Source: Micromonospora cremea
GTDB lineage: Bacteria > Actinomycetota > Actinomycetes > Mycobacteriales > Micromonosporaceae
NCBI RefSeq assembly: GCF_900143515.1
Contig: NZ_FSQT01000001.1
Span: 1,116,001 to 1,180,000 of the forward strand
Length of the DNA stretch: 64,000 bases
Direction: 5' to 3'
Below the pieces are notes generated by a model. That model was not told the DNA's origin and made no database searches. It saw nothing but the letters and a program-made list of their open reading frames with translations. Shown one piece after another: positions 47,813 through 64,000 of the stretch; the stretch's first letter is position 1, and every line of letters begins with the position of its first letter. A program made the position numbers and the translations under genes.

Positions 47813-47893
47813 GTGAAGTCCTGGGGGGGGATCATGATCACGATTGTCGATTGTTGCGCGGCCGTCTGTTGTGGATCGGCGTGCGCGTCCTGA
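47813..47893 (+). CDS. Cys-rich upstream mini-ORF (candidate attenuator leader or scaffold peptide)
   Basis: GTG 47813 (9 nt after TATGCT) or the in-frame ATG 47834 (after a G8 tract) encodes a peptide whose last 19 residues are MITIVDCCAAVCCGSACAS. Five of these are cysteine, three of them coded by TGT, a rare codon in this DNA. Its TGA (47891-47893) is followed after one base by the ATG of the megasynthase gene (TGAGATG), so downstream translation would depend on termination here. Cysteine-codon uORFs are known to mediate cysteine-responsive attenuation in actinobacteria. A role as LanB scaffold peptide is an alternative. No expression evidence. Confidence 0.5.
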   Translation: MKSWGGIMITIVDCCAAVCCGSACAS

Positions 47894-47894
47894 G

Positions 47895-50800
47895 ATGGGA
47901 AATTCGACGCTGATCCATCGCTTCAGCGATGCCGCCGCCGCTCGTCCCGACCATCCCGCCGTACTCGGCGACACCGGCCCACTCGACTACGCCGCCCTCG
48001 CCGGCCTGGCCGGGGGGCACGCCGACCTGCTGGCCGCGGCCGGCGTCCGGTCCGGTGACCGGGTCGGCCTGCTGACCGCCCATGGCGCCGGCACCATCGC
48101 CGCCATCCTCGGCACGCTCGCCGAGGGCGCCGCCTACGTTCCGCTCGACCCCGGCTTCCCGGAGCAGCGACTGCGCCACCTGCTCGACGGCGCCGACGTC
48201 ACCGTCCTGCTCTGCGGCGGCGAGCACACCGAGCTGGCCCGTCGGCTCGCCGCCGACCGGCCCGGCCTACGGGTCGTCCCGGCCCTCGACGTGCGGCCCG
48301 CGCCGCTGCGGCCGGTGCCGGTGGCCCCGGACGCGCTCGCGTACGTGCTGTTCACCTCCGGCTCCACCGGGCGGCCCAAGGCGGTCGGGCAGAGCCATCG
48401 CAACCTGACGCACGTCGTGGACAACCAGATCGCTCTCCTCGACCTGCGGCCGGACGACCGGCTGAGCCTGCTCGCCTCGTTCAGCTTCGACGCGGCGATC
48501 CCCGACCTGTACCCGGCGCTGCTCACCGGCGCCACCGTCGTCCCGGTCGACCTGCGCCGGCACGGGCTGGCGTACGCCGTCGAACAGTTGGCCCGCCACG
48601 GCGTCACCGTCTACCACTCCACCCCGACGGTCTACCGGTACCTGCTGGACACCCCGGGCGTAAAGCGACTGGACCGGGTCCGGGTGGTCCTGCTCGGCGG
48701 CGAACAGGCCAGCTACGCCGACGCGGCCCGCGCGCGGGGCCGCTTCGCCCCCGGCTGCGTCCTGGTCAACGGCTACGGGGCCACCGAGATGACCTTCGGC
48801 GCCCGGTACGCGCTGCCGCTGGCCGATGTCGACCCGGCGGCCACCGGTCCGCTGCCGATCGGCGCCGCCCTGCCCGGGTACGCGCTGCGGCTGGCGCCGG
48901 ACGGCGAGATCGTCGTACGCAGCCGGCACCTCGCCCCCGGCTACCTCGACCAGACCAGCGACCGGTTCGGCCACGACCCCGACGGCGTGCCGGCGTACCG
49001 CACCGGTGACCTGGGCGAGCTGCTGCCCACCGGCGAGCTGCGCTGCCTCGGCCGGCTGGACCGACAGGTCAAGGTGCGCGGGTTCCGGGTCGAGCTGACC
49101 GAGATCGAGTCCGTGCTCGCCGCCGAGCCGGGCATCGCCGAGGTGCGCGCCATCGCCCGCGACGGCGAGTTGCTGGCGTACGTCCGGCCGGCCGGGCCGC
49201 GGGTGGACGCGGTGGCGCTGCGGGCCGCCCTGGCCCGGCAGCTGCCCGAGTACGCGTTGCCCCGCGCCGTCGTGCCGGTCGCCGAGTTCCCCCTGACCGC
49301 CAGCGGGAAGGTCGACGAGCGGGCGCTGCCGGACCCGGCCCGGGCGGTGCCGCTCGGGGACCGGCCCGCCACCCCGACCGAGCGGGTCGTGCACGACATC
49401 TGGTGCGCCGTGCTCGGCCGGGACGCGGTCGGTCGCACCGACAGCTTCTTCGACGTCGGCGGGCAGTCCCTGCTCCTCGGCCAGGTGCAGCAGCGGTTGG
49501 CCGACCGGTTCGGTGTGGCGGTGCCGCTGCTGCGGCTCTTCGACCACCCGACCGTCGCCGCCCAGGCCCGGTTGGTCGACCCGCCGGCACCGACCACCCC
49601 GCCGCCCGCGCCGGTGGTTGCCACGCCGACCCTGCCCGCCGAGGCGCCAGCCGCCCCCGGCCTGTCCGCCGCGCCGGCCGGCGTGCGCGACCACACCGGC
49701 GACGAGATCGCCGTGGTCGGTCTCGCCGGCCGGTTCCCCGGCGCGCCGGACCTGGCCACCTTCTGGTGGAACCTGTGCGCCGGGGTGGACGCCATCCACG
49801 ACCACAGCGACGAGGAGCTGGCCGCGCTGGGCGTCGGCCCGGGGCTGCGCGCCGACCCCCGGCACGTCAAGTCCACCGGCCGGCTCGGTGGGGTCGCCGA
49901 CTTCGACGCGGAGTTCTTCGCCTTCGGCGACCGGGAGGCCGCCCGCACCGACCCGCAGCACCGGCTGTTCCTGGAGACCGCGTGGGAAGCGCTGGAGGAC
50001 GCGGGTCACGACCCGGCCCGGTTCCCCGGCCTGGTCGGCGTGTACGGCGCCACCTCCGTCAACCGCTACTTCCTGTTCCACCTGATGGACAACCCGGCGG
50101 TGGTCGGCGACGTCGACCCGGACGACTGGGAGGCCCGGCTGATCGGACGGCAGCTCACCGACCACCTGCCCGGGCAGGTCGCGTACCGGCTGGGGCTGAC
50201 CGGGCCGGCGGTGGCGGTGCAGAGCGCCTGCTCCAGCTCACTGGTGGCGGTCTGCCTCGCCGCGCAGAGCCTCGCCGACTACCAGTGCGACCTCGCCCTG
50301 GCCGGCGGGGTGAGCGTGACCTGGCCACGGCACCGGCACACTCCCGGTGGCCTGGCCTCCCCGGACGGCCGCTGCCGCGCCTTCGACGAAGCCGCCCAGG
50401 GCGCCGGGTTCGGCTCCGGCGTCGGGGTGGTGGCGCTGCGCCGGCTCGCCGACGCGCAGGCCGACGGCGACCAGGTCCTCGCGATCCTGCCCGGCTGGGC
50501 GGTCACCAACGACGGCGCCGAGCGGGCCGGCTACGCCGTCCCCGGCCCGGCCGGCCAGGCCGCCGCGGTGGCCGGCGCGCTCGCCGCCGCAGAGGTCGAC
50601 CCCGGCGAGGTCCGCTTCATCGAGACGCACGGCAGCGGCACTCCGCTCGGCGACGCCATCGAGGTGGCCGCGCTGCACGAGGTGTACCAGGGCGCCGCCC
50701 CGGCCGAGACCTGCGCGCTCGGCTCGGTGAAGACCACCATCGGGCACCTCGACGCCGCGGCCGGGATCGCCGGGCTGATCAAGGCGGTGCTCGCCGTGCG

Positions 50801-51410
50801 GCACGGCGTCATCCCGCCGAACCTGCACTTCACCCGCCCGCACCCGGAGATCGACCTGGCCGCCGGCCCCTTCTACGTACCGACCAAGGTGCGGGACTGG
50901 CCGGACGCGCCGCGCCGGGTCGCCGGGGTCAGCTCGTTCGGGCTGGGCGGCACCAACGCGCACGTCGTGGTCGAGCAGGCCCCGCCGGCCGATCCGGTCG
51001 ACCCGCCGCCGGCCGGGGCGCACCTGCTGCCGGTGTCGGCGCGTACCCCGGCGGCGCTGCGGGCGGCGTTGACCCGGCTGCGGCGGCACCTCGCCGGGAC
51101 CACCCCGGCGCTGTCCGAGGCGGCCGCGACGCTGGCGCTGGGCCGGCGCGCGTTCCGTCACCGGGCCGCCGTGGTGGCCAACGACTCGGCCGGCGCGGTT
51201 GCCGCCCTCGACGAGTTGCTGGCCACCGACGCGCGGGTGGCCGGCGCACCCGGGCCGCTGCGCGAGCTGGCCGCCGCCTGGGTGGCCGGGCGCGACGCCG
51301 ACCTCACCACCCTGCATCCCGCCGGCACCGTCCGGCGAACCTCGCTGCCCACCTACCCCTTCCAGCGGCAGCGGTACTGGATCGACCCCCCTCAGAAAGG
51401 CGTGCGGTGA
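47895..51410 (+). CDS. Hybrid NRPS-PKS: A-PCP-KS without AT
   Basis: A 1171-residue assembly-line protein starting with an adenylation domain (about 1-500; YVLFTSGSTGRPKAV, NGYGATEM, YRTGDLG, PLTASGKVDE). The by-eye specificity code is DAPHLGGFGK, which I cannot match. A PCP (DVGGQSLLLGQV, phosphopantetheine Ser525) and a ketosynthase (about 605-1025; active Cys779 in VQSACSSSLVAV, His in ETHGSGTPLGD and TTIGHLDAA) follow. The post-KS linker is directly joined to a post-AT-type tail (LPTYPFQRQRYW), with no AT and no ACP. It loads an unidentified amino acid or acid and passes it to the KS. ATG 47895 is preferred over the upstream TTG 47844, which would overlap the mini-ORF. Confidence 0.88.
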   Translation: MGNSTLIHRFSDAAAARPDHPAVLGDTGPLDYAALAGLAGGHADLLAAAGVRSGDRVGLLTAHGAGTIAAILGTLAEGAAYVPLDPGFPEQRLRHLLDGADVTVLLCGGEHTELARRLAADRPGLRVVPALDVRPAPLRPVPVAPDALAYVLFTSGSTGRPKAVGQSHRNLTHVVDNQIALLDLRPDDRLSLLASFSFDAAIPDLYPALLTGATVVPVDLRRHGLAYAVEQLARHGVTVYHSTPTVYRYLLDTPGVKRLDRVRVVLLGGEQASYADAARARGRFAPGCVLVNGYGATEMTFGARYALPLADVDPAATGPLPIGAALPGYALRLAPDGEIVVRSRHLAPGYLDQTSDRFGHDPDGVPAYRTGDLGELLPTGELRCLGRLDRQVKVRGFRVELTEIESVLAAEPGIAEVRAIARDGELLAYVRPAGPRVDAVALRAALARQLPEYALPRAVVPVAEFPLTASGKVDERALPDPARAVPLGDRPATPTERVVHDIWCAVLGRDAVGRTDSFFDVGGQSLLLGQVQQRLADRFGVAVPLLRLFDHPTVAAQARLVDPPAPTTPPPAPVVATPTLPAEAPAAPGLSAAPAGVRDHTGDEIAVVGLAGRFPGAPDLATFWWNLCAGVDAIHDHSDEELAALGVGPGLRADPRHVKSTGRLGGVADFDAEFFAFGDREAARTDPQHRLFLETAWEALEDAGHDPARFPGLVGVYGATSVNRYFLFHLMDNPAVVGDVDPDDWEARLIGRQLTDHLPGQVAYRLGLTGPAVAVQSACSSSLVAVCLAAQSLADYQCDLALAGGVSVTWPRHRHTPGGLASPDGRCRAFDEAAQGAGFGSGVGVVALRRLADAQADGDQVLAILPGWAVTNDGAERAGYAVPGPAGQAAAVAGALAAAEVDPGEVRFIETHGSGTPLGDAIEVAALHEVYQGAAPAETCALGSVKTTIGHLDAAAGIAGLIKAVLAVRHGVIPPNLHFTRPHPEIDLAAGPFYVPTKVRDWPDAPRRVAGVSSFGLGGTNAHVVVEQAPPADPVDPPPAGAHLLPVSARTPAALRAALTRLRRHLAGTTPALSEAAATLALGRRAFRHRAAVVANDSAGAVAALDELLATDARVAGAPGPLRELAAAWVAGRDADLTTLHPAGTVRRTSLPTYPFQRQRYWIDPPQKGVR

Positions 51411-54400
51411 ACTGGTTCATCTCCGCCGGCAGCCGCGACCCGGCACCGGTGCAGTTGTTCTGCCTGCCCTACGCCGGTGCCGGCGCCAGCGCGTTCCGAC
51501 ACTGGCCCGACCGGCTCGGCCCGGACGTCGAGGTGCTGCCCGTACAGCTCCCCGGCCGCGAGAACCGGATCAGCGAGGACCCGCGATTCCAGATCGCCGA
51601 CGTGGCCCGGGCCATCGCCGAGCGGGCCGACCGGCCGTACGCCATCTACGGGCACTCGATGGGCGGCCGGGTCGGCTTCGAGGTGGTCCGCGAGCTGCGC
51701 CGCACCGGGCGGCCGCTGCCACTGCGCCTCTACGTCGGCGGCGCCCGCGCCCCGCACGTCAGCGCGCCCAGCGTCTTCGACGGACTGTCCCAGGTGGACG
51801 ACGCCGAGCTGCTGCGCCGCTTGGAGGCCGGTGGCGGGCTCCCCGCCGGGCTGCTGGAGCACCCCGAACTCGTCGAGCTGCTGATGCCGCTGCTGCGCGC
51901 CGACTTCGACCGGGTGGACGGCTACCGCTACCGGCCCGAGGCGCCGCTGCCGGTGCCGATCGTGGCGTTCACCGGCCGCACCGACCAAGCGGTGACCCGG
52001 CAGCAGAGCGCCGCCTGGCGGGAGCACACCGCCGCCCGCTTCGCCCTGCGCGAGCTGGACGCCGGGCACTTCTTCCTGCACGACGCGCTGCCCGCGCTGG
52101 CCGCCGTGATCCGCGCCGACCTGCGCGCGGCCGTCGGCGGGAGCGCCCCGGAGTCAGGCGGGCACCGGATGCCGCTGGGCGACACCGGCTGGTCGGTGTG
52201 GCGCGACGCCCTGCTGCGCAGCACCGGGTTCCCGGCCGACGGGCTGACCCTGCTGGCCGCACCGCGGGCCGCCGCGGCCGCCGACGAGCTGTTGGTCACC
52301 GGCGCCGGCGTCGAGCAGTTCGACAAGGAATTCGACGAGGCCGTGCTCGCCAGCGCCCGTCAGCTGACCGACCTGGCCGCGGACCCGCTGCTGCGGGAGG
52401 CGGTCACCTGGCAGAACCGGGGTGCGTTGCCCGCCCTGGACGGGCTGGTCCGCGGTGGCGCCGAGGCCACCCGCAACGTGCGCCGGCGGGAGCGGGAACG
52501 CGCGCTGCTGAAGTACTGGCAGCGGTACTGCGGCAAGAACGAGACCGTCGGCTTCTTCGGGCCGAGCTGCTGGGTCACCATCGACCCCGACCTGCCGGCC
52601 GCCGCCGAGGTGCGCCCGGGCGCGGCGCTGACCCGCCGCCGCTGGGTGTGGTTCGAGTCGTGGGCGCTGGCCGCGTACGCCGAGCGGATCGGCGCGGACC
52701 CGGCGGTGCGCCGGTGGTGGGCGCCCCGGCTCGCCCCGCACCTGAGCCTCGCCGGCCGCGAGGTGCTTCGCCCGGGCCGGCCGCCGGTGCCGCTGTCCCC
52801 GGTCGAGGCGGCGCTGCTGGCCACCGTCGACGGCCGCCGCCCGGCCCGCGACGTGATCACCGACGGGTCGATCGGGCTGCGCCGACCCGAGGACGGGTAC
52901 GAGCTGCTGGACCGGCTCGTGCGGCGGGAGCTGCTCACCTGGGACGCCGCGCTGCCGGTGACCCCGCACGCCGAGGAGGTGCTGCGCCAGCGGATCGCAG
53001 CGATCGGCGACGCCCCGGCCCGGGCCGCCGCCGAGGCGGGCTTCGACCGGTTGTGTGCCGCCCGGGACGCGGTCGCCGCGGCGGCCGGTGACCCGGACCG
53101 GCTGCGGACCGCCCTGGACGCGCTCGACGAGACGTTCACCGAGCTGACCGGGCAGCCGCCGCAACGGCGGGCCGGGCAGATGTACGCCGGCCGCACGCTC
53201 TGCTACGAGGACACCAGCCGGGACCTGGACGTTGTCTTCGGCGCGCCGCTGCTGAACGAGCTGGCGGCGCCGCTGGCCGTGCTGCTGCGGGCCGCCCGCT
53301 GGCTGGCCGGCGCGCTGGAGGAGGCGTACGGCGCGGTCTTCCGCGAGCTCTACGACGAGTTGCGCGCCGAGGCGGGCGACGGCCCGGTCGCCCTGTCCGA
53401 CCTGTGGTTCCTGGTGCAGGGCCTGTTCTGGGGCACCGGGGAGCGCCCGGTGGACGCGGTCGCCGCGCAGTTCGCCGCCCGCTGGGCCGACCTGTTCGGC
53501 CTGGCCGGGCACCCGTCGGGCGCCACCGAGGTCCGGCTGGACGTGGCGGACCTGGCCGCCCGGGTCGACGAGGCGTTCCCGCCGCTGGCGGCGCACTGGT
53601 CCAACGCCCGGCTGCACAGCCCCGACCTGCAGATCTGCGCCGCCGACGTGGACGCGCTGGCCCGTGGCGAGTACACCGTGGTGCTCGGCGAGCTGCACGC
53701 CGCCTGGCCGTCGTTCGACACCTACGCGGTGACCCCGTCGCACCCCGACGTGGAGCGGCTGCGCGCCGCGCTGGCGGCCGACCTCGGCCCGCGTCGGATC
53801 CGGCTGCTCTACCCGACCGACTGGCCGCGGCGCACCAGCCGGGTCGCCGAGTCGCTGGCCGGCCCGACCGACCGGCAGTTGGCCTTCGCGGCGGCGCCCG
53901 GCGCCGAGGAAGACCGGGTGCTCCCCACCGTCACGCTCACCGTGCACGACGAGGCCGGCCGGCTGGTCGTCACGGCCGCCGACGGGCAGCGCTGGCCGCT
54001 GACCGAGGTCTGCGCCGCCCTGCTCAGCACCCACGCCGTCGACGGGTTCAAGCTGGTCGCCGCCGCGCCATACACACCCCGGATCACGCTGGACCGGCTG
54101 GTGGTGGCCCGGCAGACCTGGCGTACCACGGTGGGGGAGTGCGGCCTGGCCACGGTGACCGGCGACCGGGCCCGCTACCTGGCGGTGCGCGACTGGCGGC
54201 GCGGGCTCGGCCTGCCCGAGCAGGTGTACGTCAAGCTCGGCACCGAGACCAAGCCGTGCTTCGTCGACCTGAGCAGCCCCGCGTTCGCCAGCCTGTTCTG
54301 CACGATGGTCCGGGCGGCCGGCCGCGATGGCGGCGACGAGGTCACGCTGGTGGTCAGCGAGATGCTGCCCACCCCGGACGACGCCTGGGTGCCCGACGCC

Positions 54401-54472
54401 GCCGGCCGGCGCTACTTCAGCGAGCTGCGGCTGCATATCGTGGACGCCGCCGAGCCGGAGCTGGCCCGATGA
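51407..54472 (+). CDS. Type II thioesterase fused to a LanB (lantibiotic dehydratase N-domain) protein
   Basis: A 1021-residue protein. Residues 1-245 are a type II thioesterase of the GrsT/LgrE type (LFCLPYAGAGASAFRHWP; triad Ser84 in GHSMGG, Asp193 in GRTDQ, His221 in AGHFFLHD). Residues 255-1021 match the lantibiotic dehydratase N-domain (tRNA-dependent glutamylation) from the WRDALLRSTGFP start through RYCGKNETVGFFGPSCW (372-388), a long central region, LDRLVVARQTWR and YLAVRDWRRGLGLPEQVYVKLGTE to the typical SELRLHIVD end. No elimination (SpaB_C) domain is present. There is no stop between the halves; an internal ATG at 52169 (MPLGDTGWSVW) could also give free LanB. The start overlaps the preceding gene (GTGA). 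Confidence 0.82.
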   Translation: MNWFISAGSRDPAPVQLFCLPYAGAGASAFRHWPDRLGPDVEVLPVQLPGRENRISEDPRFQIADVARAIAERADRPYAIYGHSMGGRVGFEVVRELRRTGRPLPLRLYVGGARAPHVSAPSVFDGLSQVDDAELLRRLEAGGGLPAGLLEHPELVELLMPLLRADFDRVDGYRYRPEAPLPVPIVAFTGRTDQAVTRQQSAAWREHTAARFALRELDAGHFFLHDALPALAAVIRADLRAAVGGSAPESGGHRMPLGDTGWSVWRDALLRSTGFPADGLTLLAAPRAAAAADELLVTGAGVEQFDKEFDEAVLASARQLTDLAADPLLREAVTWQNRGALPALDGLVRGGAEATRNVRRRERERALLKYWQRYCGKNETVGFFGPSCWVTIDPDLPAAAEVRPGAALTRRRWVWFESWALAAYAERIGADPAVRRWWAPRLAPHLSLAGREVLRPGRPPVPLSPVEAALLATVDGRRPARDVITDGSIGLRRPEDGYELLDRLVRRELLTWDAALPVTPHAEEVLRQRIAAIGDAPARAAAEAGFDRLCAARDAVAAAAGDPDRLRTALDALDETFTELTGQPPQRRAGQMYAGRTLCYEDTSRDLDVVFGAPLLNELAAPLAVLLRAARWLAGALEEAYGAVFRELYDELRAEAGDGPVALSDLWFLVQGLFWGTGERPVDAVAAQFAARWADLFGLAGHPSGATEVRLDVADLAARVDEAFPPLAAHWSNARLHSPDLQICAADVDALARGEYTVVLGELHAAWPSFDTYAVTPSHPDVERLRAALAADLGPRRIRLLYPTDWPRRTSRVAESLAGPTDRQLAFAAAPGAEEDRVLPTVTLTVHDEAGRLVVTAADGQRWPLTEVCAALLSTHAVDGFKLVAAAPYTPRITLDRLVVARQTWRTTVGECGLATVTGDRARYLAVRDWRRGLGLPEQVYVKLGTETKPCFVDLSSPAFASLFCTMVRAAGRDGGDEVTLVVSEMLPTPDDAWVPDAAGRRYFSELRLHIVDAAEPELAR

Positions 54473-55071
54473 GCCACCGGCTACCGCTCGGGGAAACCCT
54501 CTGGTCGGTGTGGCGCGACGTGGTGCTGCGCACCGCTGGGTTCCCGGCGGTCGGGCTGGACGCCTTCGCCGCCCCGGACGCCGCCGACGCGCTGCTGGCC
54601 GGCGAGGTCGCCGCCGAGGTGTTCGACAAGGCGCTGGCCGTGGCGCTGGCCGACGCTTCGGCGACCGCCGGGCGGATCGCCGCCGATCCGCTGCTGCGCG
54701 AGGCGGTGACCTGGCAGAACCTGGAGATGGTCGCCGAGAGCGGGCTGGTCGGGGTGACCGGCGAGGCAGAGCGGTTCCTCGCGGTGCGCCGGTGGCCGGC
54801 CCGGCTCGGTCTGCCCGAGCGGGTGTTCGTGAAGGTCGGTACCGAGGTCAAGCCCTGCTACGTCGACCTGACCGGCGCGCTCTACGCCCAGTCGCTGTGC
54901 GCGATGGTCAACGCCGCCGCCCGCAGCGGCCCGGACGTCACGGTCGTGGTCGGCGAGCTACTGCCCGCACCGACGGACTGCTGGGTGACCGACGCGCGCG
55001 GGCGCGCGTACGTCAGCGAACTGCGTCTCCAGATCACCGATCCGATGACCTACCCCGGGGAGCACCGGTGA
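54469..55071 (+). CDS. Mini-LanB: internally deleted LanB paralogue
   Basis: A 200-residue protein whose residues 1-85 (LPLGETLWSVWRDVVLRTAG, ADPLLREAVTWQN) match the first 90 residues of the adjacent LanB domain. Its residues 90-200 (RFLAVRRWPARLGLPERVF, VKPCYVDLTGA, VVVGELLPAPTDCWVTD, YVSELRLQITD) match the last 110. About 570 residues of the LanB middle are missing, with a clean in-frame join. Both ends overlap the neighbours by 4 bp (ATGA and GTGA), so this is a maintained gene, not debris. It may act as a partner or regulatory subunit of the full LanB. No similar minimal LanB is known to me. Confidence 0.8.
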   Translation: MSHRLPLGETLWSVWRDVVLRTAGFPAVGLDAFAAPDAADALLAGEVAAEVFDKALAVALADASATAGRIAADPLLREAVTWQNLEMVAESGLVGVTGEAERFLAVRRWPARLGLPERVFVKVGTEVKPCYVDLTGALYAQSLCAMVNAAARSGPDVTVVVGELLPAPTDCWVTDARGRAYVSELRLQITDPMTYPGEHR

Positions 55072-58000
55072 CCGACATCCTGTCCATCAGCGCCGTACGG
55101 GGAGAGCCGCTGCCCTGGCCGGACGCGACGCTCGCCGAGCTGGTGGTCGCGCAGGCCAACCGGACCCCGGACGCGGTGGCGGTGCGCCAGTGGGACACCC
55201 GGCTCAGTTACGCCGACCTGCTGGCCCGCGCCGCCGCAGTGGCCGCGGCGCTGCGCGAGCGCGGCGTGGGCCGGCAGACCCGGGTGGGTGTGTGTGGCGG
55301 CCGCCGGCCGGAGCTGGTGGCCACCGTGCTGGGGGTGTTGCTGGCTGGCGGTTGCTACGTGCCGCTGGAGCCGGGCGGCCCGCGTCGGCGGCTGCGCGGG
55401 ATCGCCGCCGACGCGGGCGTGTCCCTGGTGGTCGGCGACGCCGCCGACGCGGAGTTCGGCGACGCGCCGGGCATCGAGGCGCTCGGGCTGCCCGGCCCGG
55501 CCCCGCTCGCGCCCTGCCCGGCCCGCCCCGGCGATCCGGCGTACGTGCTGTTCACCTCGGGCTCCACCGGGCGGCCCAAGGGCGTGCTCACCAGCCACCG
55601 CAACGTGGTCGAGTTCGTCACCGGCGTGGTCGCTCTCACCGGCGCGGACGCGGGCGTACGCAGCCTCGGCATCGCTTCGCTCGGTTTCGACGCGGCCACC
55701 ATGGACCTGTTCGTGCCGCTGCTGCTCGGCGGCACGGTGCAGCTGCTCGGCGCGGAGGACCGCGCCGACCCGGTGCGGCTGACCCGCTTCATCGCGGCGC
55801 ACGAGGTGAACTGGGGCTTCATCACGCCCACCGTGCTGGCCATGCTGGACCCGGCGGAGCTGCCCGGCTGGCGCACCGTGCTGTGCGGGGGCGAGGCGGT
55901 GCCGGCCGCCCTGGCCGCCCGCTGGGCGCCGGGCCGCCGTTTCCTCAACGGCTACGGGCCGACCGAGACCACGGTGCTCGCGGTCAGCGGCCCGTTGAGC
56001 GCCACCGAGACCGATCCGGTGCCGATCGGCCGACCGCTGCCCAACCACCGGGCGTACGTGGTGGACACGACGCTGGCCCCGGTGCCGGCGGGCGAGACCG
56101 GCGAGCTGCTGATCGGCGGGCCCGGACTGGCCGACGGCTATCTGGGCCGGCCGGCGCTGACCGCCGAGCGGTTCGTCCCGGACCCGTTCTCCGGCCTGCC
56201 CGGCGAGCGGCTGTACCGCACCGGCGACCTGGTCCGGCACGGCCCGGACGGGCGGATCGTCTACCTGGGCCGCGCGGATCGACAGGTCAAGATTCGTGGG
56301 CAGCGCATCGAGCTGGGCGAGGTGGAGGCGGTGCTGGCCGACCTGCCCGGGGTGACCGGGGTCGCGGTGGAGGCGGTACCCGGACCCGCCGGCGTCGAGC
56401 TGGTCGCGTTCCTCACCCCGGCGGACGCGCCCGACGACGCCCGACTGCGGGCGTACGCCGGCAGTCGGCTGACCGCGGCGATGCTGCCGGCACGGGTGCT
56501 GCGCCGCGGGTCCCTGCCGGTCAGCGCGGTCAGCGGGAAGCTGGACCGGCCGGCGCTGCGCGCGCTGGCCGTGACCGCCCTCGCCACCCCGCAGTCCGAC
56601 CCGGTCGACACCGGTGGTGCGGCCGCCGCCGAGCCGGCCGGTGACCCGGTCGCGGCGGCGGTGGCCGGGATCTGGACCCGGCTGCTGGGCGTGCCGCCCG
56701 GCCCGGACACCGACTTCCTCGCCGCCGGTGGCAACTCCATCGCGGCGATGCGCCTGGTCGCCGCGCTCCGCGCCGAGCTGGGCCGGCAGCTCGACACCCG
56801 CGAGGTGTTCACCCGGCGCACCTTCGGCCGGCTGGTCGAGGGGGTGGCCGCCGCGCCGAGCGGCGGCGACGGGCTGAGCACCGGCAACCCGCCGACGCTC
56901 TCCCCGCCGCAGCGCCGACTCTGGTTCGTCGACCAGCTCGCGCCGTCCAGCGCGCCCTACAACATCGCCGTGGCGCACCGGCTGCGTGGCCCGCTCGACA
57001 CCGCCGCGATCGGCGCCGCGCTGCGGGCCGTCGCCGAACGGCACGACGTGCTGCGCTGGCGGATCCCGCAGACCGGCGGCGTGCCGTACGCGGTCTGCGC
57101 CGAGCCCACCGACGTGGCGGTGCCGGTGGTCGACCTCACCGGCAGCGCCGATCGGGAGGCCGAGCTGGCCCGGATGCTCGCCGCGGGCGCCGCGCACCCC
57201 TTCGACCTGGCCACCGGGCCGCCGTGGCAGGTCACCGCCTACCGGCTCGGCCCGGACGAGCACGTGCTGGCCGTCACCTGGCACCACGCCGTCTTCGACG
57301 GCTGGTCCGAGCGGGTCTGCTACGACGACCTGGCCACCGGGTACGCCCGCGCGGTGGCCGGCGAGCCGCCACGATTGCCGGAGCTGTCCGCCCGCTACGC
57401 CGACTACGCCGTCTGGCGGGCCGAACGGGACCGCCAGCGCGGTTCCGCCGATCTGACCTGGTGGACGGCGCACCTGGACGGCGTGCCGACAGTGCTGGAG
57501 CTGCCCCGGGACCGACCCCGGCCCGCGGTGCAGACCTACGCCGGTGCGGAGGCCGGCGTCCGGCTGTCCGCCGACACCGACCGCGCGGTCCGGGAGCTGG
57601 CCGAGCGGCGCGGCACCACGGTCGCCGCCGTGCTGCTGGCCGCGTTCGGCGAGCTGATCGCGCGGCTCACCGGCGGCGACGACCACGTGCTCGGGGCGAT
57701 CGTCGCCGACCGGCGGCTGGCCGCGTTCGACGACGTGATCGGCTTCTTCATCGACACCGTGCCGGTGCGGGTCCGCACCGCCGGAGCGAGCTTCGCCGAG
57801 CTGGTCGACCGGTGCGCCGGGGAGCTGCACGAGGCCACCGCCCACCCGGGTGCGCCGCTGGAACGCATCGTCGAGGCGTTGGGCGTCGGCCGGGACACCG
57901 CCCGGGCGCCGCTGGTGCAGGTGCTGTTCAACGTGCTCAACTTCGCGCCGCCCCGGCTGACGCTGACCGGGCTGACCGCGGAGCCGGTGCCGGTGCCGGT

Positions 58001-58616
58001 GCCCAAGCCGGGCTCACCGTTCGACATCACCGTCTACGTGGTCCGGTCCGACGGCCGCACCGGCGTCGAGGTGGTCTACAACCCGGACCTCTTCGACGCC
58101 GGGCGCATCGACGACCTGCTCGCCGACCTGGTCGAGCTGGTGGGCGCGCTGGCCGCCGCACCGGACACGCCGGCCCGCGAGGTGGTCGCCGCGCTGCCCC
58201 GGCCCACCGTGCGGGTGCCGCAGCTCGGCGCGATGACCGTCGCCGGCAGCGAAACGACGCGCCACCCGCCGGCGCTGGTGCCCGCGGGCCCGGACGGGCT
58301 CACTGACACCGAGGAGCTGATCGCGGGAATCTGGCGGGAGGTGCTGGAGCGCGACCGGGTCGGGGTGACCGACAACTTCTTCGACATCGGGGGGCACTCC
58401 CTCGCGCTCGCCGCCGTGCACGCCCGGCTGACCGCCGCCACCGGCCGCTCCATCAAGATGCTCGATCTGTTCCGCCACCCCACCGTCCGGGCGCTCGCCG
58501 CCAGCCTCGATGGGGCCGCCGACCGCCCGGAGCTGGCGCGGGCCGCTCTGCGCGCCGCCGCCCGCCGCAGCCGTACCCGCCGTATCCCTCCCCGCCGCCC
58601 CGGCGGCACCGCGTGA
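55068..58616 (+). CDS. NRPS with order A-PCP-C-PCP
   Basis: A 1182-residue synthetase. The adenylation domain (about 25-500; YVLFTSGSTGRPKGV, NGYGPTETT, YRTGDLV, SAVSGKLDR) has a by-eye code of DAMFLGGVLK, suggesting a small aliphatic or branched residue. PCP1 has Ser557 in AAGGNSIAAM. A condensation domain (about 600-1030) has the HHAVFDG active site near 740. PCP2 has Ser1111 in IGGHSLALAA. The C domain has no own A domain, and the first A domain has no preceding C, so the protein fits between other modules. GTG 55068 overlaps the mini-LanB stop, with GGGGAG upstream. Confidence 0.9.
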   Translation: MTDILSISAVRGEPLPWPDATLAELVVAQANRTPDAVAVRQWDTRLSYADLLARAAAVAAALRERGVGRQTRVGVCGGRRPELVATVLGVLLAGGCYVPLEPGGPRRRLRGIAADAGVSLVVGDAADAEFGDAPGIEALGLPGPAPLAPCPARPGDPAYVLFTSGSTGRPKGVLTSHRNVVEFVTGVVALTGADAGVRSLGIASLGFDAATMDLFVPLLLGGTVQLLGAEDRADPVRLTRFIAAHEVNWGFITPTVLAMLDPAELPGWRTVLCGGEAVPAALAARWAPGRRFLNGYGPTETTVLAVSGPLSATETDPVPIGRPLPNHRAYVVDTTLAPVPAGETGELLIGGPGLADGYLGRPALTAERFVPDPFSGLPGERLYRTGDLVRHGPDGRIVYLGRADRQVKIRGQRIELGEVEAVLADLPGVTGVAVEAVPGPAGVELVAFLTPADAPDDARLRAYAGSRLTAAMLPARVLRRGSLPVSAVSGKLDRPALRALAVTALATPQSDPVDTGGAAAAEPAGDPVAAAVAGIWTRLLGVPPGPDTDFLAAGGNSIAAMRLVAALRAELGRQLDTREVFTRRTFGRLVEGVAAAPSGGDGLSTGNPPTLSPPQRRLWFVDQLAPSSAPYNIAVAHRLRGPLDTAAIGAALRAVAERHDVLRWRIPQTGGVPYAVCAEPTDVAVPVVDLTGSADREAELARMLAAGAAHPFDLATGPPWQVTAYRLGPDEHVLAVTWHHAVFDGWSERVCYDDLATGYARAVAGEPPRLPELSARYADYAVWRAERDRQRGSADLTWWTAHLDGVPTVLELPRDRPRPAVQTYAGAEAGVRLSADTDRAVRELAERRGTTVAAVLLAAFGELIARLTGGDDHVLGAIVADRRLAAFDDVIGFFIDTVPVRVRTAGASFAELVDRCAGELHEATAHPGAPLERIVEALGVGRDTARAPLVQVLFNVLNFAPPRLTLTGLTAEPVPVPVPKPGSPFDITVYVVRSDGRTGVEVVYNPDLFDAGRIDDLLADLVELVGALAAAPDTPAREVVAALPRPTVRVPQLGAMTVAGSETTRHPPALVPAGPDGLTDTEELIAGIWREVLERDRVGVTDNFFDIGGHSLALAAVHARLTAATGRSIKMLDLFRHPTVRALAASLDGAADRPELARAALRAAARRSRTRRIPPRRPGGTA

Positions 58617-58630
58617 CGAAGGACAGCCTG

Positions 58631-61600
58631 ATGAGCAACCCGACCGCATCCGACCTGCCCGACGACGTCACCGACCTGCCCGATGAGGGCATCGAACCGA
58701 TCGCGATCGTCGGCCTGGCCGCGCGCCTGCCCGGCGCGGCCGACGTGCACGAGTTCTGGCGCAACCTCATCGACGGGGTGGAGTCGGTCACCGAGCTGAC
58801 CCGGGAGGAGCAGCTGGCCCGGGGCGCGATCGTGGCCGAGGTCGACGACCCGGGCTGGGTCAGTCGTGCTCCGCTGGTCGACGGCTACGACGAGTTCGAC
58901 GCCGCGCTGTTCGGGATGACCGCCCGGGAGGCGGAGCTGACCGACCCGCAGCACCGCCTGTTCCTGGAGTCCTGCCACACGGCTCTGGAGGACGCCGGCT
59001 ACGACCCGACCCGCTACGACGGCGCGATCGGCGTGTACGCCGGCACCGGCGGCAACACGTACCTGCACCGGAATGTGCTGCGCAACCAGCGCGTCGGCGG
59101 CAACCCGCACGGCGCGGTCTCCATCGCCACCGGCAACTCGCCGAACTATGTGGCCACCAACGTGTCGTACCGCCTGGACCTGCGCGGGCCGAGCCTGACC
59201 GTGCACACCGCCTGCTCCACCTCCCTGGTCGCGTTCCACCTGGCGTGCGAGGCGCTGCGCAACGGCGAGTGCGACATGGCGCTCGCCGGCGGTGTGAACA
59301 TCGAGCTGCCGCACGTCGGCTACCTCGGCATGGAGGGCTTCACCTCACCCGACGGCCGCTGCCGCCCGTTCGACGCCGCCGCCAACGGCACGGTGTGGGG
59401 CAGCGGTGTCGGGGTGACCCTGCTCAAGCGGCTCTCCGACGCGATCGCCGACGGGGACGCCATCCGCGCGGTCGTGCTCGGCAACGCGATCAACAACGAC
59501 GGCGCCGGCAAGGTCGGCTTCACCGCGCCCAGCGTCGACGGGCAGGCGTCGGCCATCGCCCAGGCCGTGGCGATGGCCGACGTCGACCCCCGCACCGTCA
59601 GCTACGTCGAGGCACACGGCACCGGCACGGCCATGGGCGACCCGATCGAGGTGGCCGCGCTCTCCGCCGTGTACGCCCGCGACACCGACGAGCGGGGCTG
59701 GTGCGGCATCGGCTCGGTGAAGTCGAACATCGGGCACCTCAGTCAGCCCTCCGGCATCGTCAGCGTGATCAAGACGGTGCTCGCCATGGAGCACGGGCTG
59801 ATCCCGCCGACGATCAACTTCGAGACGCCGAACCCGGCCGTCGAGTTCGCCGACACCCCGTTCTACGTGGCGAACACGCTCACAAAGTGGGACACGGACG
59901 GCGGGCCCCGCCGGGCCGGGGTCAGCTCGTTCGGCATCGGCGGCACCAACGCCCACGTGGTGCTGGAGGAGGCGCCGGCGGCGTACCGCACCGACCGTCG
60001 GGTTCGTCCGGCACATCTGCTCCGGGTCAGCGCGGCCACCCCGAGCGCCCTGGACGCGGCGGTGCAGCACCTCGCCGAGCACCTGGACGGCGCCGCCGAC
60101 GCCGGGCCGGCGTACCTCGCCGACGTCGCGCACACCCTGCTCGTCGGCCGCCGCCAGTACCCGCACCGCCGCGCCGTGGTAGCCACCGACATCCCGGGTG
60201 CGGCCGCCGCCCTGCGCGCCCCGGTGCGCGGACCGCAACCATTGACCAACAGTTCAGCCCCGACGGTAGGGTTCCTCTTCTCCGGCCAGGGCGCCCAGTA
60301 CGCCGGGATGGGCGCGCAGCTCTACGCCGAGCAGCCCCGCTTCGCCGCGGTCGTCGACGAGTGCGCCGAGCTGCTCCGCCCCGACCTGGGCCTGGACCTG
60401 CGCGACCTGATCCTGGGCCGCGACCCGGCGGCGGGGGAGAAGCTCACCGAGACCCGATACACCCAGCCAGCGCTGTTCACCGTCGAGTACGCCCTGGCCG
60501 CGCTCTGGCAGGCGGCCGGGGTCCGGCCGGCCGCGATGATCGGCCACTCCATCGGCGAGTACGTCGCGGCCACCGTGGCCGGCGTGCTGAGCCTGCCGGA
60601 CGCGTTGCGGGTGGTCGCCGCCCGGGGTCGGCTGATGCAGTCGCTGCCCGCCGGGTCGATGCTCGCCGTCGCGCTGGACGAGTCGGTCGTCGTCGACCTG
60701 CTGCCCGACGGGCTCTGCGTGGCCACGGTCAACGGCCCGGGCACCTGCGTTGTGGCCGGTGAGACCGTGGAGGCGTTCGCCGCGACGCTGAAGGGCAAGT
60801 CGAAGGTGCTGCGCACCTCGCACGCGTTCCACTCGCCGATGATGGAGCCGATCCTCGCCGAGTTCACCGCGCTGATGGGTACGGTGCCGCTGCGCCCGCC
60901 GACGGTGCCGTTCCTGTCCAACGTCACCGGCACCTGGATCACCGCCGAGCAGGCCACCGACCCGGCGTACTGGGCGACGCACCTGCGTCAGCCGGTCCGC
61001 TTCGGTGACTGCGTGGCCACCCTGCTGACCGCGGGCACCTGGCAACTGGTCGAGTGCGGTCCCGGCCGGCAGTTGGCCAACCTGACCCGGATGCAGGTCG
61101 GCAAGGCCGCGCCGGAGCAGCGCACGCTCACCCCGCTGGGCAGCCTGCCCGCCGCCGGGGAGGCGACCGGTGACCTGGCCGCCCTGCTCGCCACCGCCGG
61201 GGCGCTGTGGTGCGCCGGGCTGCCGGTGCGTGTCGACGCGGACCCGACGGCCCGCCGGGTGCCGCTGCCCACGTACCCGTTCGAGCGCCGCCGCTACTGG
61301 ATCGAGCCGGATCCGGAGCAGGCCGTCGCCGCCGCGCCGGTGGAGACCGGGCCGCGACCGCTGGCCGAGTGGTTCGCGGTGCCGGTCTGGCGGCAGGCCG
61401 CCCCGCTGCCGCCGTCCGGGTCGTTGGGTCGCTGCCTGGTCCTCACCGCGGGTCCGCGCGGTGACGCGCTGGTCGCCGGCCTGCGGGCCGCCGGTGCCGA
61501 CCCGGTGCCGGTACGCCCCGGCGACGCCTTCGCCACCGCCGACGATGGCTACCGGCTCCGCCCAGGTGTACGTGCCGACCACGACGCGCTGGTCGCGGCG

Positions 61601-64000
61601 CTCACCGCCGACGCCACACCGCCGATCCGGCTGGTGCACGCGTTCACCCTGGACGGCGCGCCCACCGGCACCGACATCGGGGCCACCTGGGCCGCTCAGG
61701 ACCTGGGCTTCTTCAGTGCCCTGCACCTGGTGCAGGCGCTCGCCGGCGCCGGCCTCACCGGCGAGGAGCACGGCGTCGCCCTGGACCTGGTCACCGCCGG
61801 CACCGGCGACGTGCGCGGCGACGACCTGCGTCGCCCGGAGCACGCCACCCTCACCGGGTTGGCCCGGGTGCTCCCCGCCGAGCTGCCCGGGCTGGCCGTC
61901 CGTCTCATCGACGCGGATCCAACCGACGACGACGCCAGCACGGTGGTCGCCGAGCTGCGCCGTCCCCGGGAGCCCGAGGTGGCCCTGCGCGGCGGCCGCC
62001 GCTGGGTGGCCGACGTCGAACAGGTGACGATCGACGCCGAGGGTGAGCCGGGCGCGGTGCGCGACGGCGGCCGGTACCTGGTCACCGGTGGGCTCGGTGG
62101 GATCGGCATCACCCTGGCCGAGGACTTCGCCACCCGGGCCCGCGCGCGGCTGGTGCTGCTGGCCCGCTCCGGGCTGCCGGAGCGCGAGCGGTGGGACGAC
62201 CACCTCGCCGTGCACGGCGACGATCGCGCGGGTCGGGCGATCGCGGCGATCCGGCGGATGGAGGCCGCCGGCGCCGAGGTGCTGGTGCTCGCCGCGGACG
62301 TCACCGACCCGGCCGACCTGCGCCGGGTCCGCGACGCCGCGACGGCCGCGTACGGCGGCATCGACGGCATCGTCCACGCGGCCGGCCTGCCCGGCGGCGG
62401 GATGGCCGAGGTCAAGGAGCGGGCTGAGGCCGAACGGGTGCTCGCCCCGAAGCTCGCCGGCACCCTCGCCCTCGCCCAGGTCTTCGGCGACCTGCCCCTG
62501 GACTTCGTGGTGCTCTGCTCGTCCATCACCGCGGTGGTCGGCGGCTTCGGGCAGGTGGACTACTGCGCCGCCAACGCCTTCCTGGACGCGCACGCCCGCT
62601 CCGGCGCCGGCTGGCGGGCTCCGGTGCTGTCGCAGAACTGGGGCGGCTGGGCCGAGGTGGGCATGGCGGTCGAGACCGCCGCGCCGGCCGGCTTCCGGGC
62701 TGCCGGTCGCGACACGGTCACCAGCGCGGTCGACCACCCGGTGCTCACCACGAAGGTCACCGGGCCGGCGGAGACCGTGCTGCACGGCCTGGTCTCCGCC
62801 AGCACCCACTGGCTGCTCGACGAGCACCGGATCGGCGGCGTGCCGGTCGTACCGGGCACCGCCCACCTGGAATCGGTGCGGGCCGCGGTGGCCGTTGCGC
62901 TGCCCGCTCCCGGGCCGGGCGCGGCGGTGGAGCTGCGCGACGTGGTCTTCCTGGAGCCGTTCGCGGTGCCCGACGGCACCGTCGCCCAGTACCGGGTGGA
63001 GCTGACGCCGGCCGACGACGGCGGCACCGACTTCGCGGTCCGCAGCCTGGCCGATGGCCGACTGCGCACCCACGTGCGCGGCGCGGCCGGTTGGACCGAC
63101 GAGCCGGCCCCGCCGGCTGCCCCGGCCGTCCCGGCCGGCCGCCGGGTGGACGACGACGCCTCCTTCGGCCGGGGCCGAACCAGCATGCTCACCTTCGGGC
63201 CGCGCTGGGCCGCGCTGGGCGAGCACCACCTGGCCGACGGCTCCGAACTGGCGGTGGTCGAGGCACCCGCCGCGGCCGTCGGCGACCTGCCCGCCTGGGG
63301 CCTGCACCCCGCGCTGCTGGACGTGGCGACCGCGTTCGGCCGGGGCCAGGGCAGCGGCACGTACCTGCCGCTGTCGTACGGCCGGATCGTGGTGCGGGGG
63401 CCGCTGCCGGCCCGGTTCACCAGCGAGCTGCGGCACCGGCCCGGCGACACCGACGAGGTCGTCGCCGCCGATCTGTCGCTGCGCGACCCGGACGGCCGGG
63501 AGCTGGTCGCGATCAGCGACTTCGTGCTGCGCCGGGTCGACCAGGGCGCGGTCACCGGCGGTCTGACCGGACCGTCCGGTACGGACGCCGACGCGGTGGC
63601 GCCGACCTCGACCGAGGACATCCGGCCGCTGGACGGCGCGGAGGCGTTCCGCCGTAGCCTCACCGCCGGCCTCGGCGCCCAGGTGGTCATCGCCACCCGG
63701 ACGGTGGACGACATCCGGCGCCGCGCCGGGCGGGTCACCACCGACAACCTCACCGGCGACGACGCGGTCGCCGACCCGGCGGGGCCCCGCAACGGCGACG
63801 GCAGCGCCCAGCCGGGCACCGAACTGGAGATGACCATCGCCCGGGTGTGGCAGGACGGGCTCGGGGTGGCCGAGGTCGACGTCGACGACGACTTCTTCGC
63901 CCTGGGCGGCAACTCCCTGGTCGCGGTGCAACTCATCGCGGCGATGCGCAGGGCGACCGGGGTGCGGCTGCCGATGCGCAGCCTCTTCGAGACGCCCACC
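58631..64000 (+). CDS. Type I PKS module KS-AT-KR-DH-ACP (3' partial)
   Basis: 1790 residues visible, open at the right edge. KS at about 20-450 (Cys195 in HTACSTSLVAF, His in EAHGTGTAMGD and NIGHLSQPSG). AT at about 550-860 with Ser640 in GHSIGEY and HAFHSPMM, the malonyl-CoA-type motif. KR at about 1000-1340 (TGGLGGIGITLAEDF; Ser in LCSSI, Tyr in GQVDYCAANAF). DH at about 1390-1640 with the catalytic His1399 (HRIGGVPVVP) and Asp in HPALLD. ACP with Ser1762 (DFFALGGNSLVAVQ). The KR precedes the DH, the reverse of the usual DH-KR order. AAGGA lies 7 nt before ATG 58631, 14 bp after the NRPS stop. Confidence 0.9.
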   Translation, partial: MSNPTASDLPDDVTDLPDEGIEPIAIVGLAARLPGAADVHEFWRNLIDGVESVTELTREEQLARGAIVAEVDDPGWVSRAPLVDGYDEFDAALFGMTAREAELTDPQHRLFLESCHTALEDAGYDPTRYDGAIGVYAGTGGNTYLHRNVLRNQRVGGNPHGAVSIATGNSPNYVATNVSYRLDLRGPSLTVHTACSTSLVAFHLACEALRNGECDMALAGGVNIELPHVGYLGMEGFTSPDGRCRPFDAAANGTVWGSGVGVTLLKRLSDAIADGDAIRAVVLGNAINNDGAGKVGFTAPSVDGQASAIAQAVAMADVDPRTVSYVEAHGTGTAMGDPIEVAALSAVYARDTDERGWCGIGSVKSNIGHLSQPSGIVSVIKTVLAMEHGLIPPTINFETPNPAVEFADTPFYVANTLTKWDTDGGPRRAGVSSFGIGGTNAHVVLEEAPAAYRTDRRVRPAHLLRVSAATPSALDAAVQHLAEHLDGAADAGPAYLADVAHTLLVGRRQYPHRRAVVATDIPGAAAALRAPVRGPQPLTNSSAPTVGFLFSGQGAQYAGMGAQLYAEQPRFAAVVDECAELLRPDLGLDLRDLILGRDPAAGEKLTETRYTQPALFTVEYALAALWQAAGVRPAAMIGHSIGEYVAATVAGVLSLPDALRVVAARGRLMQSLPAGSMLAVALDESVVVDLLPDGLCVATVNGPGTCVVAGETVEAFAATLKGKSKVLRTSHAFHSPMMEPILAEFTALMGTVPLRPPTVPFLSNVTGTWITAEQATDPAYWATHLRQPVRFGDCVATLLTAGTWQLVECGPGRQLANLTRMQVGKAAPEQRTLTPLGSLPAAGEATGDLAALLATAGALWCAGLPVRVDADPTARRVPLPTYPFERRRYWIEPDPEQAVAAAPVETGPRPLAEWFAVPVWRQAAPLPPSGSLGRCLVLTAGPRGDALVAGLRAAGADPVPVRPGDAFATADDGYRLRPGVRADHDALVAALTADATPPIRLVHAFTLDGAPTGTDIGATWAAQDLGFFSALHLVQALAGAGLTGEEHGVALDLVTAGTGDVRGDDLRRPEHATLTGLARVLPAELPGLAVRLIDADPTDDDASTVVAELRRPREPEVALRGGRRWVADVEQVTIDAEGEPGAVRDGGRYLVTGGLGGIGITLAEDFATRARARLVLLARSGLPERERWDDHLAVHGDDRAGRAIAAIRRMEAAGAEVLVLAADVTDPADLRRVRDAATAAYGGIDGIVHAAGLPGGGMAEVKERAEAERVLAPKLAGTLALAQVFGDLPLDFVVLCSSITAVVGGFGQVDYCAANAFLDAHARSGAGWRAPVLSQNWGGWAEVGMAVETAAPAGFRAAGRDTVTSAVDHPVLTTKVTGPAETVLHGLVSASTHWLLDEHRIGGVPVVPGTAHLESVRAAVAVALPAPGPGAAVELRDVVFLEPFAVPDGTVAQYRVELTPADDGGTDFAVRSLADGRLRTHVRGAAGWTDEPAPPAAPAVPAGRRVDDDASFGRGRTSMLTFGPRWAALGEHHLADGSELAVVEAPAAAVGDLPAWGLHPALLDVATAFGRGQGSGTYLPLSYGRIVVRGPLPARFTSELRHRPGDTDEVVAADLSLRDPDGRELVAISDFVLRRVDQGAVTGGLTGPSGTDADAVAPTSTEDIRPLDGAEAFRRSLTAGLGAQVVIATRTVDDIRRRAGRVTTDNLTGDDAVADPAGPRNGDGSAQPGTELEMTIARVWQDGLGVAEVDVDDDFFALGGNSLVAVQLIAAMRRATGVRLPMRSLFETPT

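What the first reader, a model, noticed from the sequence alone, without database searches (positions are those of the whole stretch)
51407..54472. tRNA-dependent LanB domain fused to a thioesterase inside an NRPS/PKS operon
A 767-residue lantibiotic-dehydratase N-domain without elimination domain is joined in frame to a type II thioesterase and is translationally coupled to megasynthase genes on both sides. Known LanB N-domains and PEARLs transfer an amino acid from aminoacyl-tRNA to Ser/Thr side chains or to a peptide C-terminus. Here no classical RiPP precursor is seen, so the acceptor may be a carrier-bound or released assembly-line intermediate. That would be a merger of ribosome-associated tRNA chemistry with nonribosomal synthesis.
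Basis: partly seen in the sequence, partly recalled or inferred. Interest (0 to 1): 0.92.

Follow-up and report, generated by a model that had tools for sequence, protein, structure and literature searches.

The report
tRNA-dependent ligase in peptide assembly line
A soil bacterium's natural-product assembly line carries an enzyme that probably takes amino acids from the tRNAs used for protein synthesis and joins them to the product; the enzyme type has been described before, but this version, fused to a thioesterase and usually present as a pair, is an uncharacterised variant.

The parts
51407..54472 (+). TE-PEARL1: type II thioesterase fused to a PEARL-type LanB-fold domain, 1021 aa
51452..52117 (+). 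thioesterase domain, residues 16-237, GHSMG from residue 82
52163..54445 (+). PEARL domain, about residues 253-1013; D740 at 53624-53626, E762 to H764 at 53690-53698, E1006 to R1008 at 54422-54430
54469..55071 (+). remnant of PEARL2 (200 aa: 87 from the start, 113 from the end); in-frame deletion junction at 54729/54730
47844..51410 (+). A-PCP-KS protein, no AT; start codon uncertain
55068..58616 (+). A-PCP-C-PCP protein; C-domain motif HHAVFDG, not EHHXXHDG
58613..64000 (+). KS-AT-KR-DH-ACP polyketide synthase; gene ends at 64105, past the window (L078:613-6105)

Best explanation
The gene encodes a type II thioesterase fused to a PEARL. The PEARL part most likely uses ATP to activate a free carboxylate of an NRPS/PKS-made intermediate as an acyl phosphate, lets the amine of an aminoacyl-tRNA attack it, and the tRNA is then hydrolysed off, so that one amino acid is added. 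Shown here: the fusion, the LanB fold, the PEARL-type residue set and its invariance, the fixed place in an assembly-line operon, and an ancestral tandem partner that is broken in this strain. Inferred from TglB, BhaB and SnaE: the chemistry. Open: the acceptor. I weigh two candidates about equally: the carboxylate of the starter residue after a chain reversal at the C2 domain (as in threopeptin but with another C-domain signature), or an acid set free by the fused thioesterase. With PEARL2 deleted, this strain would make a congener lacking one tRNA-derived residue, or no product.
Against: No activity was tested. TglB, BhaB and SnaE sequences were not at hand, so residue equivalence rests on motif and spacing; in BhaBCTrp the first spacing is 17 (558/575), not 22, and the Arg reported as fully conserved in PEARLs for the tRNA 3' end could not be mapped: the nearest candidate here is Lys377. 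C2 lacks the published ureido motif. The terminal TE has a Cys nucleophile, which does not point to a free C-terminal acid. In L039-L041 TE and PEARL are separate, so fusion is not required.
Confidence: 0.75

Rival explanations
1. It is a glutamylation domain: it esterifies a Ser/Thr of an assembly-line or RiPP substrate with Glu from tRNA, for later elimination.
For: Closest solved fold is TbtB; Pfam model is Lant_dehydr_N; R271, R373, W905 and E1006 are shared with 12 of 12 LanB-type rows.
Against: No PF14028 in the cluster proteins scanned; D740, H764 and R1008 are absent from 12 of 12 LanB-type rows and present here. The genome-wide PF14028 search found none, but its control was silent, so that is inconclusive.
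Confidence: 0.07
2. The cluster is decaying in this strain and TE-PEARL1 has little present role.
For: PEARL2 lost 1,698 bp here; L043 and L044 have broken frames.
Against: The deletion is in frame and keeps the 4-base overlaps; the other cluster frames read here are open; TE-PEARL1 keeps the diagnostic residues; PEARL1 without PEARL2 also occurs in L023 and in seven genomes.
Confidence: 0.12
3. The thioesterase is a plain editing enzyme and its fusion to the PEARL has no mechanistic meaning.
For: Solved relatives include RifR; separate TE and PEARL frames in L039-L041.
Against: In-frame fusion in 38 of 44 sequences, 39 counting L005, and in the more distant L143 and L150.
Confidence: 0.45

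Closest known systems
SnaE, threopeptin cluster of Stackebrandtia nassauensis (PMC11212132)
   Same: Annotated lantibiotic dehydratase without RiPP precursor in an NRPS-PKS cluster with A-T-C-A-T, KS-AT, TE and MbtH genes; adds an amino acid to an assembly-line intermediate.
   Different: SnaE stands alone, one copy, with a ureido-forming C domain (EHHXXHDG). Here the PEARL is fused to a TE, was duplicated in tandem, and C2 reads HHAVFDG; the PKS has KR and DH. SnaE's own sequence was not compared.
PEARLs TglB, BhaB, AmmB (PMC11117183, PMC11962472)
   Same: LanB-type fold without elimination domain, ATP-grasp-like residue set.
   Different: They extend ribosomal carrier peptides; none was seen in this operon.
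TbtB and other LanB glutamylation domains (6ec8, 5ehk, 4wd9)
   Same: Overall fold and several basic residues.
   Different: LanB-type rows lack D740, H764 and R1008.
Type II thioesterases such as RifR (3fla)
   Same: Fold by sequence and Ser nucleophile motif.
   Different: Free-standing there, fused to a PEARL here.

Membership tests
PEARL (peptide aminoacyl-tRNA ligase) | LanB-type fold | tested here: met
PEARL (peptide aminoacyl-tRNA ligase) | no PF14028 elimination domain in gene or cluster | tested here: met
   genome-wide search inconclusive, control silent
PEARL (peptide aminoacyl-tRNA ligase) | ATP-site residues equivalent to TglB Asp542, Glu801, Arg803 | tested here: met
   D740, E1006, R1008 by motif and spacing; TglB itself not aligned
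PEARL (peptide aminoacyl-tRNA ligase) | residues for the tRNA 3' CCA end (BhaBCTrp Arg208, Tyr205 and others) | tested here: inconclusive
   basic helix R361/R373/Y374/K377 conserved, one-to-one mapping not possible without BhaB
PEARL (peptide aminoacyl-tRNA ligase) | ATP- and aminoacyl-tRNA-dependent amide formation | not testable with these tools
   needs enzymology
RiPP (pearlin) PEARL system | carrier peptide gene in the cluster | tested here: inconclusive
   ORFs in the gap before the A-PCP-KS gene and around the TauD gene show no evident carrier by eye; an MbtH-like frame lies in one; elsewhere not searched
Threopeptin-type (ureido) NRPS-PEARL system | ureido-forming C domain, EHHXXHDG | tested here: not met
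   HHAVFDGWS in 41 and HHNVFDGWS in 1 of 44 sequences, no motif read in L044 and L047, EHHXXHDG in none of the plus-strand frames
Threopeptin-type (ureido) NRPS-PEARL system | PEARL encoded among NRPS/PKS genes | tested here: met
Class I lanthipeptide dehydratase | PF14028 elimination domain with PF04738 | tested here: not met
   absent from gene and the cluster proteins scanned
Type II thioesterase | PF00975 fold with GxSxG motif, outside a terminal NRPS module | tested here: met

The most novel reading that the evidence does not exclude
A second way to couple tRNA and assembly-line chemistry that needs no ureido group: the fused thioesterase frees, or the distinct C2 clade exposes, a carboxylate of an NRPS/PKS intermediate, and one or two PEARLs in tandem extend it with amino acids from tRNA. 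TE-PEARL would be a release-and-religate unit, and strains that lost PEARL2, like this one, would make shortened congeners.
Probability: 0.35. Interest if true: 0.75.

Novelty: new variant of a known kind. Interest (0 to 1): 0.5.

Why it matters
It offers a second, common and testable setting for the recently found use of aminoacyl-tRNA in nonribosomal biosynthesis, one in which the published account of the acceptor (ureido chain reversal) fails its motif test. 50 of 151 Micromonospora genomes hold a full-length PEARL2 (hand count), so natural variants with two, one or a broken second PEARL can be compared. If thioesterase and PEARL work together, this would be a new way to extend assembly-line products.

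Tried and rejected
Rejected: 'miniLanB as a short functional partner'. It is 50% and 55% identical to the two ends of PEARL1. Against L003 it aligns at 408 of 439 bases before and 404 of 467 bases after a clean 1,698-bp gap. It lacks the stretch that in PEARL1 runs from about residue 342 to 908, with R361, R373, K377, D740, E762, H764, R892, R902 and the RRE-like part. Of 16 proteins found, itself included, no other covers more than 74% of it. Rejected: the longer frame 49403-54472 as the gene; the coupled start is 51407.

Tried without result: the LanB domain against PDB sequences found no LanB chain; PF14028 in the genome, control silent; text search for lantibiotic dehydratase, Micromonospora, NRPS, thioesterase, 0 papers. 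Searches for work after threopeptin failed seven times, so I cannot say that TE-fused PEARLs have not been studied since. PMC9303977, PMC12715798 and PMC12550832 were looked at by word search only. No row of the 50 fold matches shown is named a PEARL.

Rows dropped: L045 and L046 (no LanB in the DNA held) of the 45 loci L003-L047; L048-L077 (match only in the TE part); from the alignment, L005's PEARL1, fragments of L043 and L044 and the window's remnant; there the row L005_LanB1 is L005's PEARL2. Of 26 loci L081-L106 meant as LanB-type controls 12 were used, the others gave no central plus-strand frame of 650 residues; these controls are named by PF04738 score and length, PF14028 in them was not checked. 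The related-loci scan kept the best 80 of 144 matches.

Weak points: the C-domain tree is a quick one with long branches. A-domain specificities are read from contexts with codes recalled, not computed.

Full report
OBSERVATION. The frame 51407-54472 (GTG to TGA) gives 1021 residues. Pfam finds a thioesterase at residues 16-237 (E 2.1e-33) and Lant_dehydr_N in two stretches from residue 325 (E 8.7e-29). The TE keeps GHSMG; the 13 PDB sequences matched include RifR and other thioesterases. The gene overlaps both neighbours by 4 bases. The window lies in a 7.76-Mb genome of two contigs whose two PF04738 pieces are both in this gene. Its close relatives are Micromonospora.

CLUSTER. Reading on past the window, the order is A-PCP-KS; TE-PEARL1; PEARL2 remnant; A-PCP-C-PCP; KS-AT-KR-DH-ACP; TauD dioxygenase; an MbtH-like small frame ending at L078:7270 (by eye); C-A-PCP; C-A-PCP-TE-MFS. 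No PF14028 was found in the proteins scanned.

PEARL OR DEHYDRATASE. [quoted passage not shown] it also names Glu564 and a His conserved in PEARLs. PMC11962472 (passages) writes Glu542 for the first residue and gives BhaBCTrp Asp558, Glu575, Glu813, Arg815. Here D740, E762-L-H764 and E1006-L-R1008 have the TglB spacings (22 and 2); the BhaBCTrp spacing 558/575 is 17. In a joint alignment D740, H764, E947, K949 and R1008 occur in 8 of 8 PEARL-type rows and 0 of 12 LanB-type rows, while R271, R373, W905 and E1006 occur in 12 of 12 LanB-type rows. In 41 family and cousin rows D740, H764, E1006 and R1008 never vary; E762 is Asp in one. In the family alignment they are invariant in 42 rows labelled PEARL1 and 32 labelled PEARL2.

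RELATIVES. The scan of genome contigs gave 75 loci from the best 80 of 144 matches. 45 (L003-L047) belong to this family by match; two hold only the TE part, leaving 43: 36 Micromonospora and 7 others (two Nonomuraea, Bailinhaonella, Planobispora, Planomonospora, Microtetraspora, Catelliglobosispora). The order TE, PEARL, A, C, KS recurs; exceptions are L047, which ends after A, and broken or patchy matches in L043 and L044. The A1 domain before KS1 was not found in the seven others, and L035 has no KS1 before TE. A second PEARL follows in 35 of 43, two of them (L043, L044) with broken frames; it is absent in L023 and the seven others. The tree of 41 rows joins PEARL1 and PEARL2 of Micromonospora (98/96), so the duplication is old. 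Of 151 Micromonospora genomes, 93 have some match to PEARL2 of L003; by hand count from the listing, 50 hold a full-length copy at 68-100% identity, G391 and G346 a partial one, and seven (G262, G264, G342, G358, G375, G380, G386) a PEARL1-like match at 56-58% but no PEARL2 (weaker rows were not listed).

THE 'MINILANB'. Against L003 the window aligns at 93.8% before and 92.5% after a gap that removes L003 13333-15030: 1,698 bases, 566 codons, in frame; junction 54729/54730. What is left is 87 residues from the start and 113 from the end of PEARL2. It may be a real deletion or an assembly error; one assembly was available.

ACCEPTOR. In threopeptin a ureido-forming C domain (EHHXXHDG) leaves a free carboxylate on the starter residue, where SnaE adds Thr (PMC11212132). 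Here C2 reads HHAVFDGWS in 41 and HHNVFDGWS in 1 of 44 sequences; none was read in L044 and L047, and EHHXXHDG was in no plus-strand frame. C2 sequences form a clade apart from the two EHHXXHDG domains seen near cousin PEARLs (L128, L148; 2 of 21 loci looked at) in a quick tree. By the published rule there is no ureido group. Yet C2 sits where the ureido domain sits in sna, and L035 has an A domain after C2, giving the sna-like order A-PCP-C-A before the PKS, so another kind of chain reversal is possible. The other candidate is an acid freed by the fused TE. Against a plain C-terminal acid: the terminal TE has Cys for Ser (GHCGVG) here and in 12 of 12 genomes that I picked.

WIDER PICTURE. Twenty stretches taken around more distant PEARLs of Micromonospora, 19 of them with a PEARL of 36-57% identity to PEARL1, show other settings: between PKS and NRPS genes (L131-L134), beside a ureido-type C domain (L148), and as a C-A-PCP-PEARL fusion (L146). 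The paper's remark on thioesterase and thiolation fusions covers these kinds.

VERDICT. Real, well conserved, and of a class whose first NRPS member was published in 2024. I file it as an NRPS-associated PEARL, not as a threopeptin-type system, because the ureido motif was tested and not met. The new points are the TE fusion as a conserved unit, the ancestral PEARL pair, the missing ureido signature and the deletion in this genome.

Noticed in passing
L078:10508-16012 (beyond the window, G000:C1:1184508-1190012): Terminal NRPS module fused in frame to a thioesterase and then to an MFS transporter; the TE nucleophile is Cys (GHCGVG), also in 12 of 12 genomes picked. Cys thioesterases are recalled from strained-ring formation (obafluorin, sulfazecin); with a Ser-like A domain a beta-lactone end is a guess.
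   Followed up: partly
L078:6129-7082 and L078:7395-10511: TauD-type dioxygenase next to a C-A-PCP gene whose A domain contexts look like the Asn code, the last A domain like the Ser code (contexts; codes recalled): perhaps beta-hydroxy-Asn.
   Followed up: no
L146:742-7284: A PEARL fused to the end of an NRPS module (C-A-PCP-PEARL, 2181-residue frame) in another Micromonospora; similar long frames in L138, L140, L147, L149.
   Followed up: partly
L128 (12580-13926, minus strand) and L148 (13517-14824, minus strand): C domains with the ureido motif EHHXXHDG in clusters that also hold a PEARL: likely further threopeptin-type systems.
   Followed up: partly
L033:5670-8265, L042:5740-8232: In relatives outside Micromonospora KS1 is preceded by a DUF6002 protein (PF19465) and an NAD(P)-binding dehydrogenase-like protein, fused in L042, in place of A1-PCP.
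   Followed up: partly
window 52706-52954 (P0001 residues 434-516): An RRE-like winged helix, the peptide-binding domain of RiPP enzymes, is kept in a PEARL with no visible precursor peptide; it might bind a carrier domain or be structural.
   Followed up: no
window 47844-51410 and 58613-64105: Two KS domains but one AT: the first protein ends in KS with no AT, and the PKS has KR before DH.
   Followed up: no
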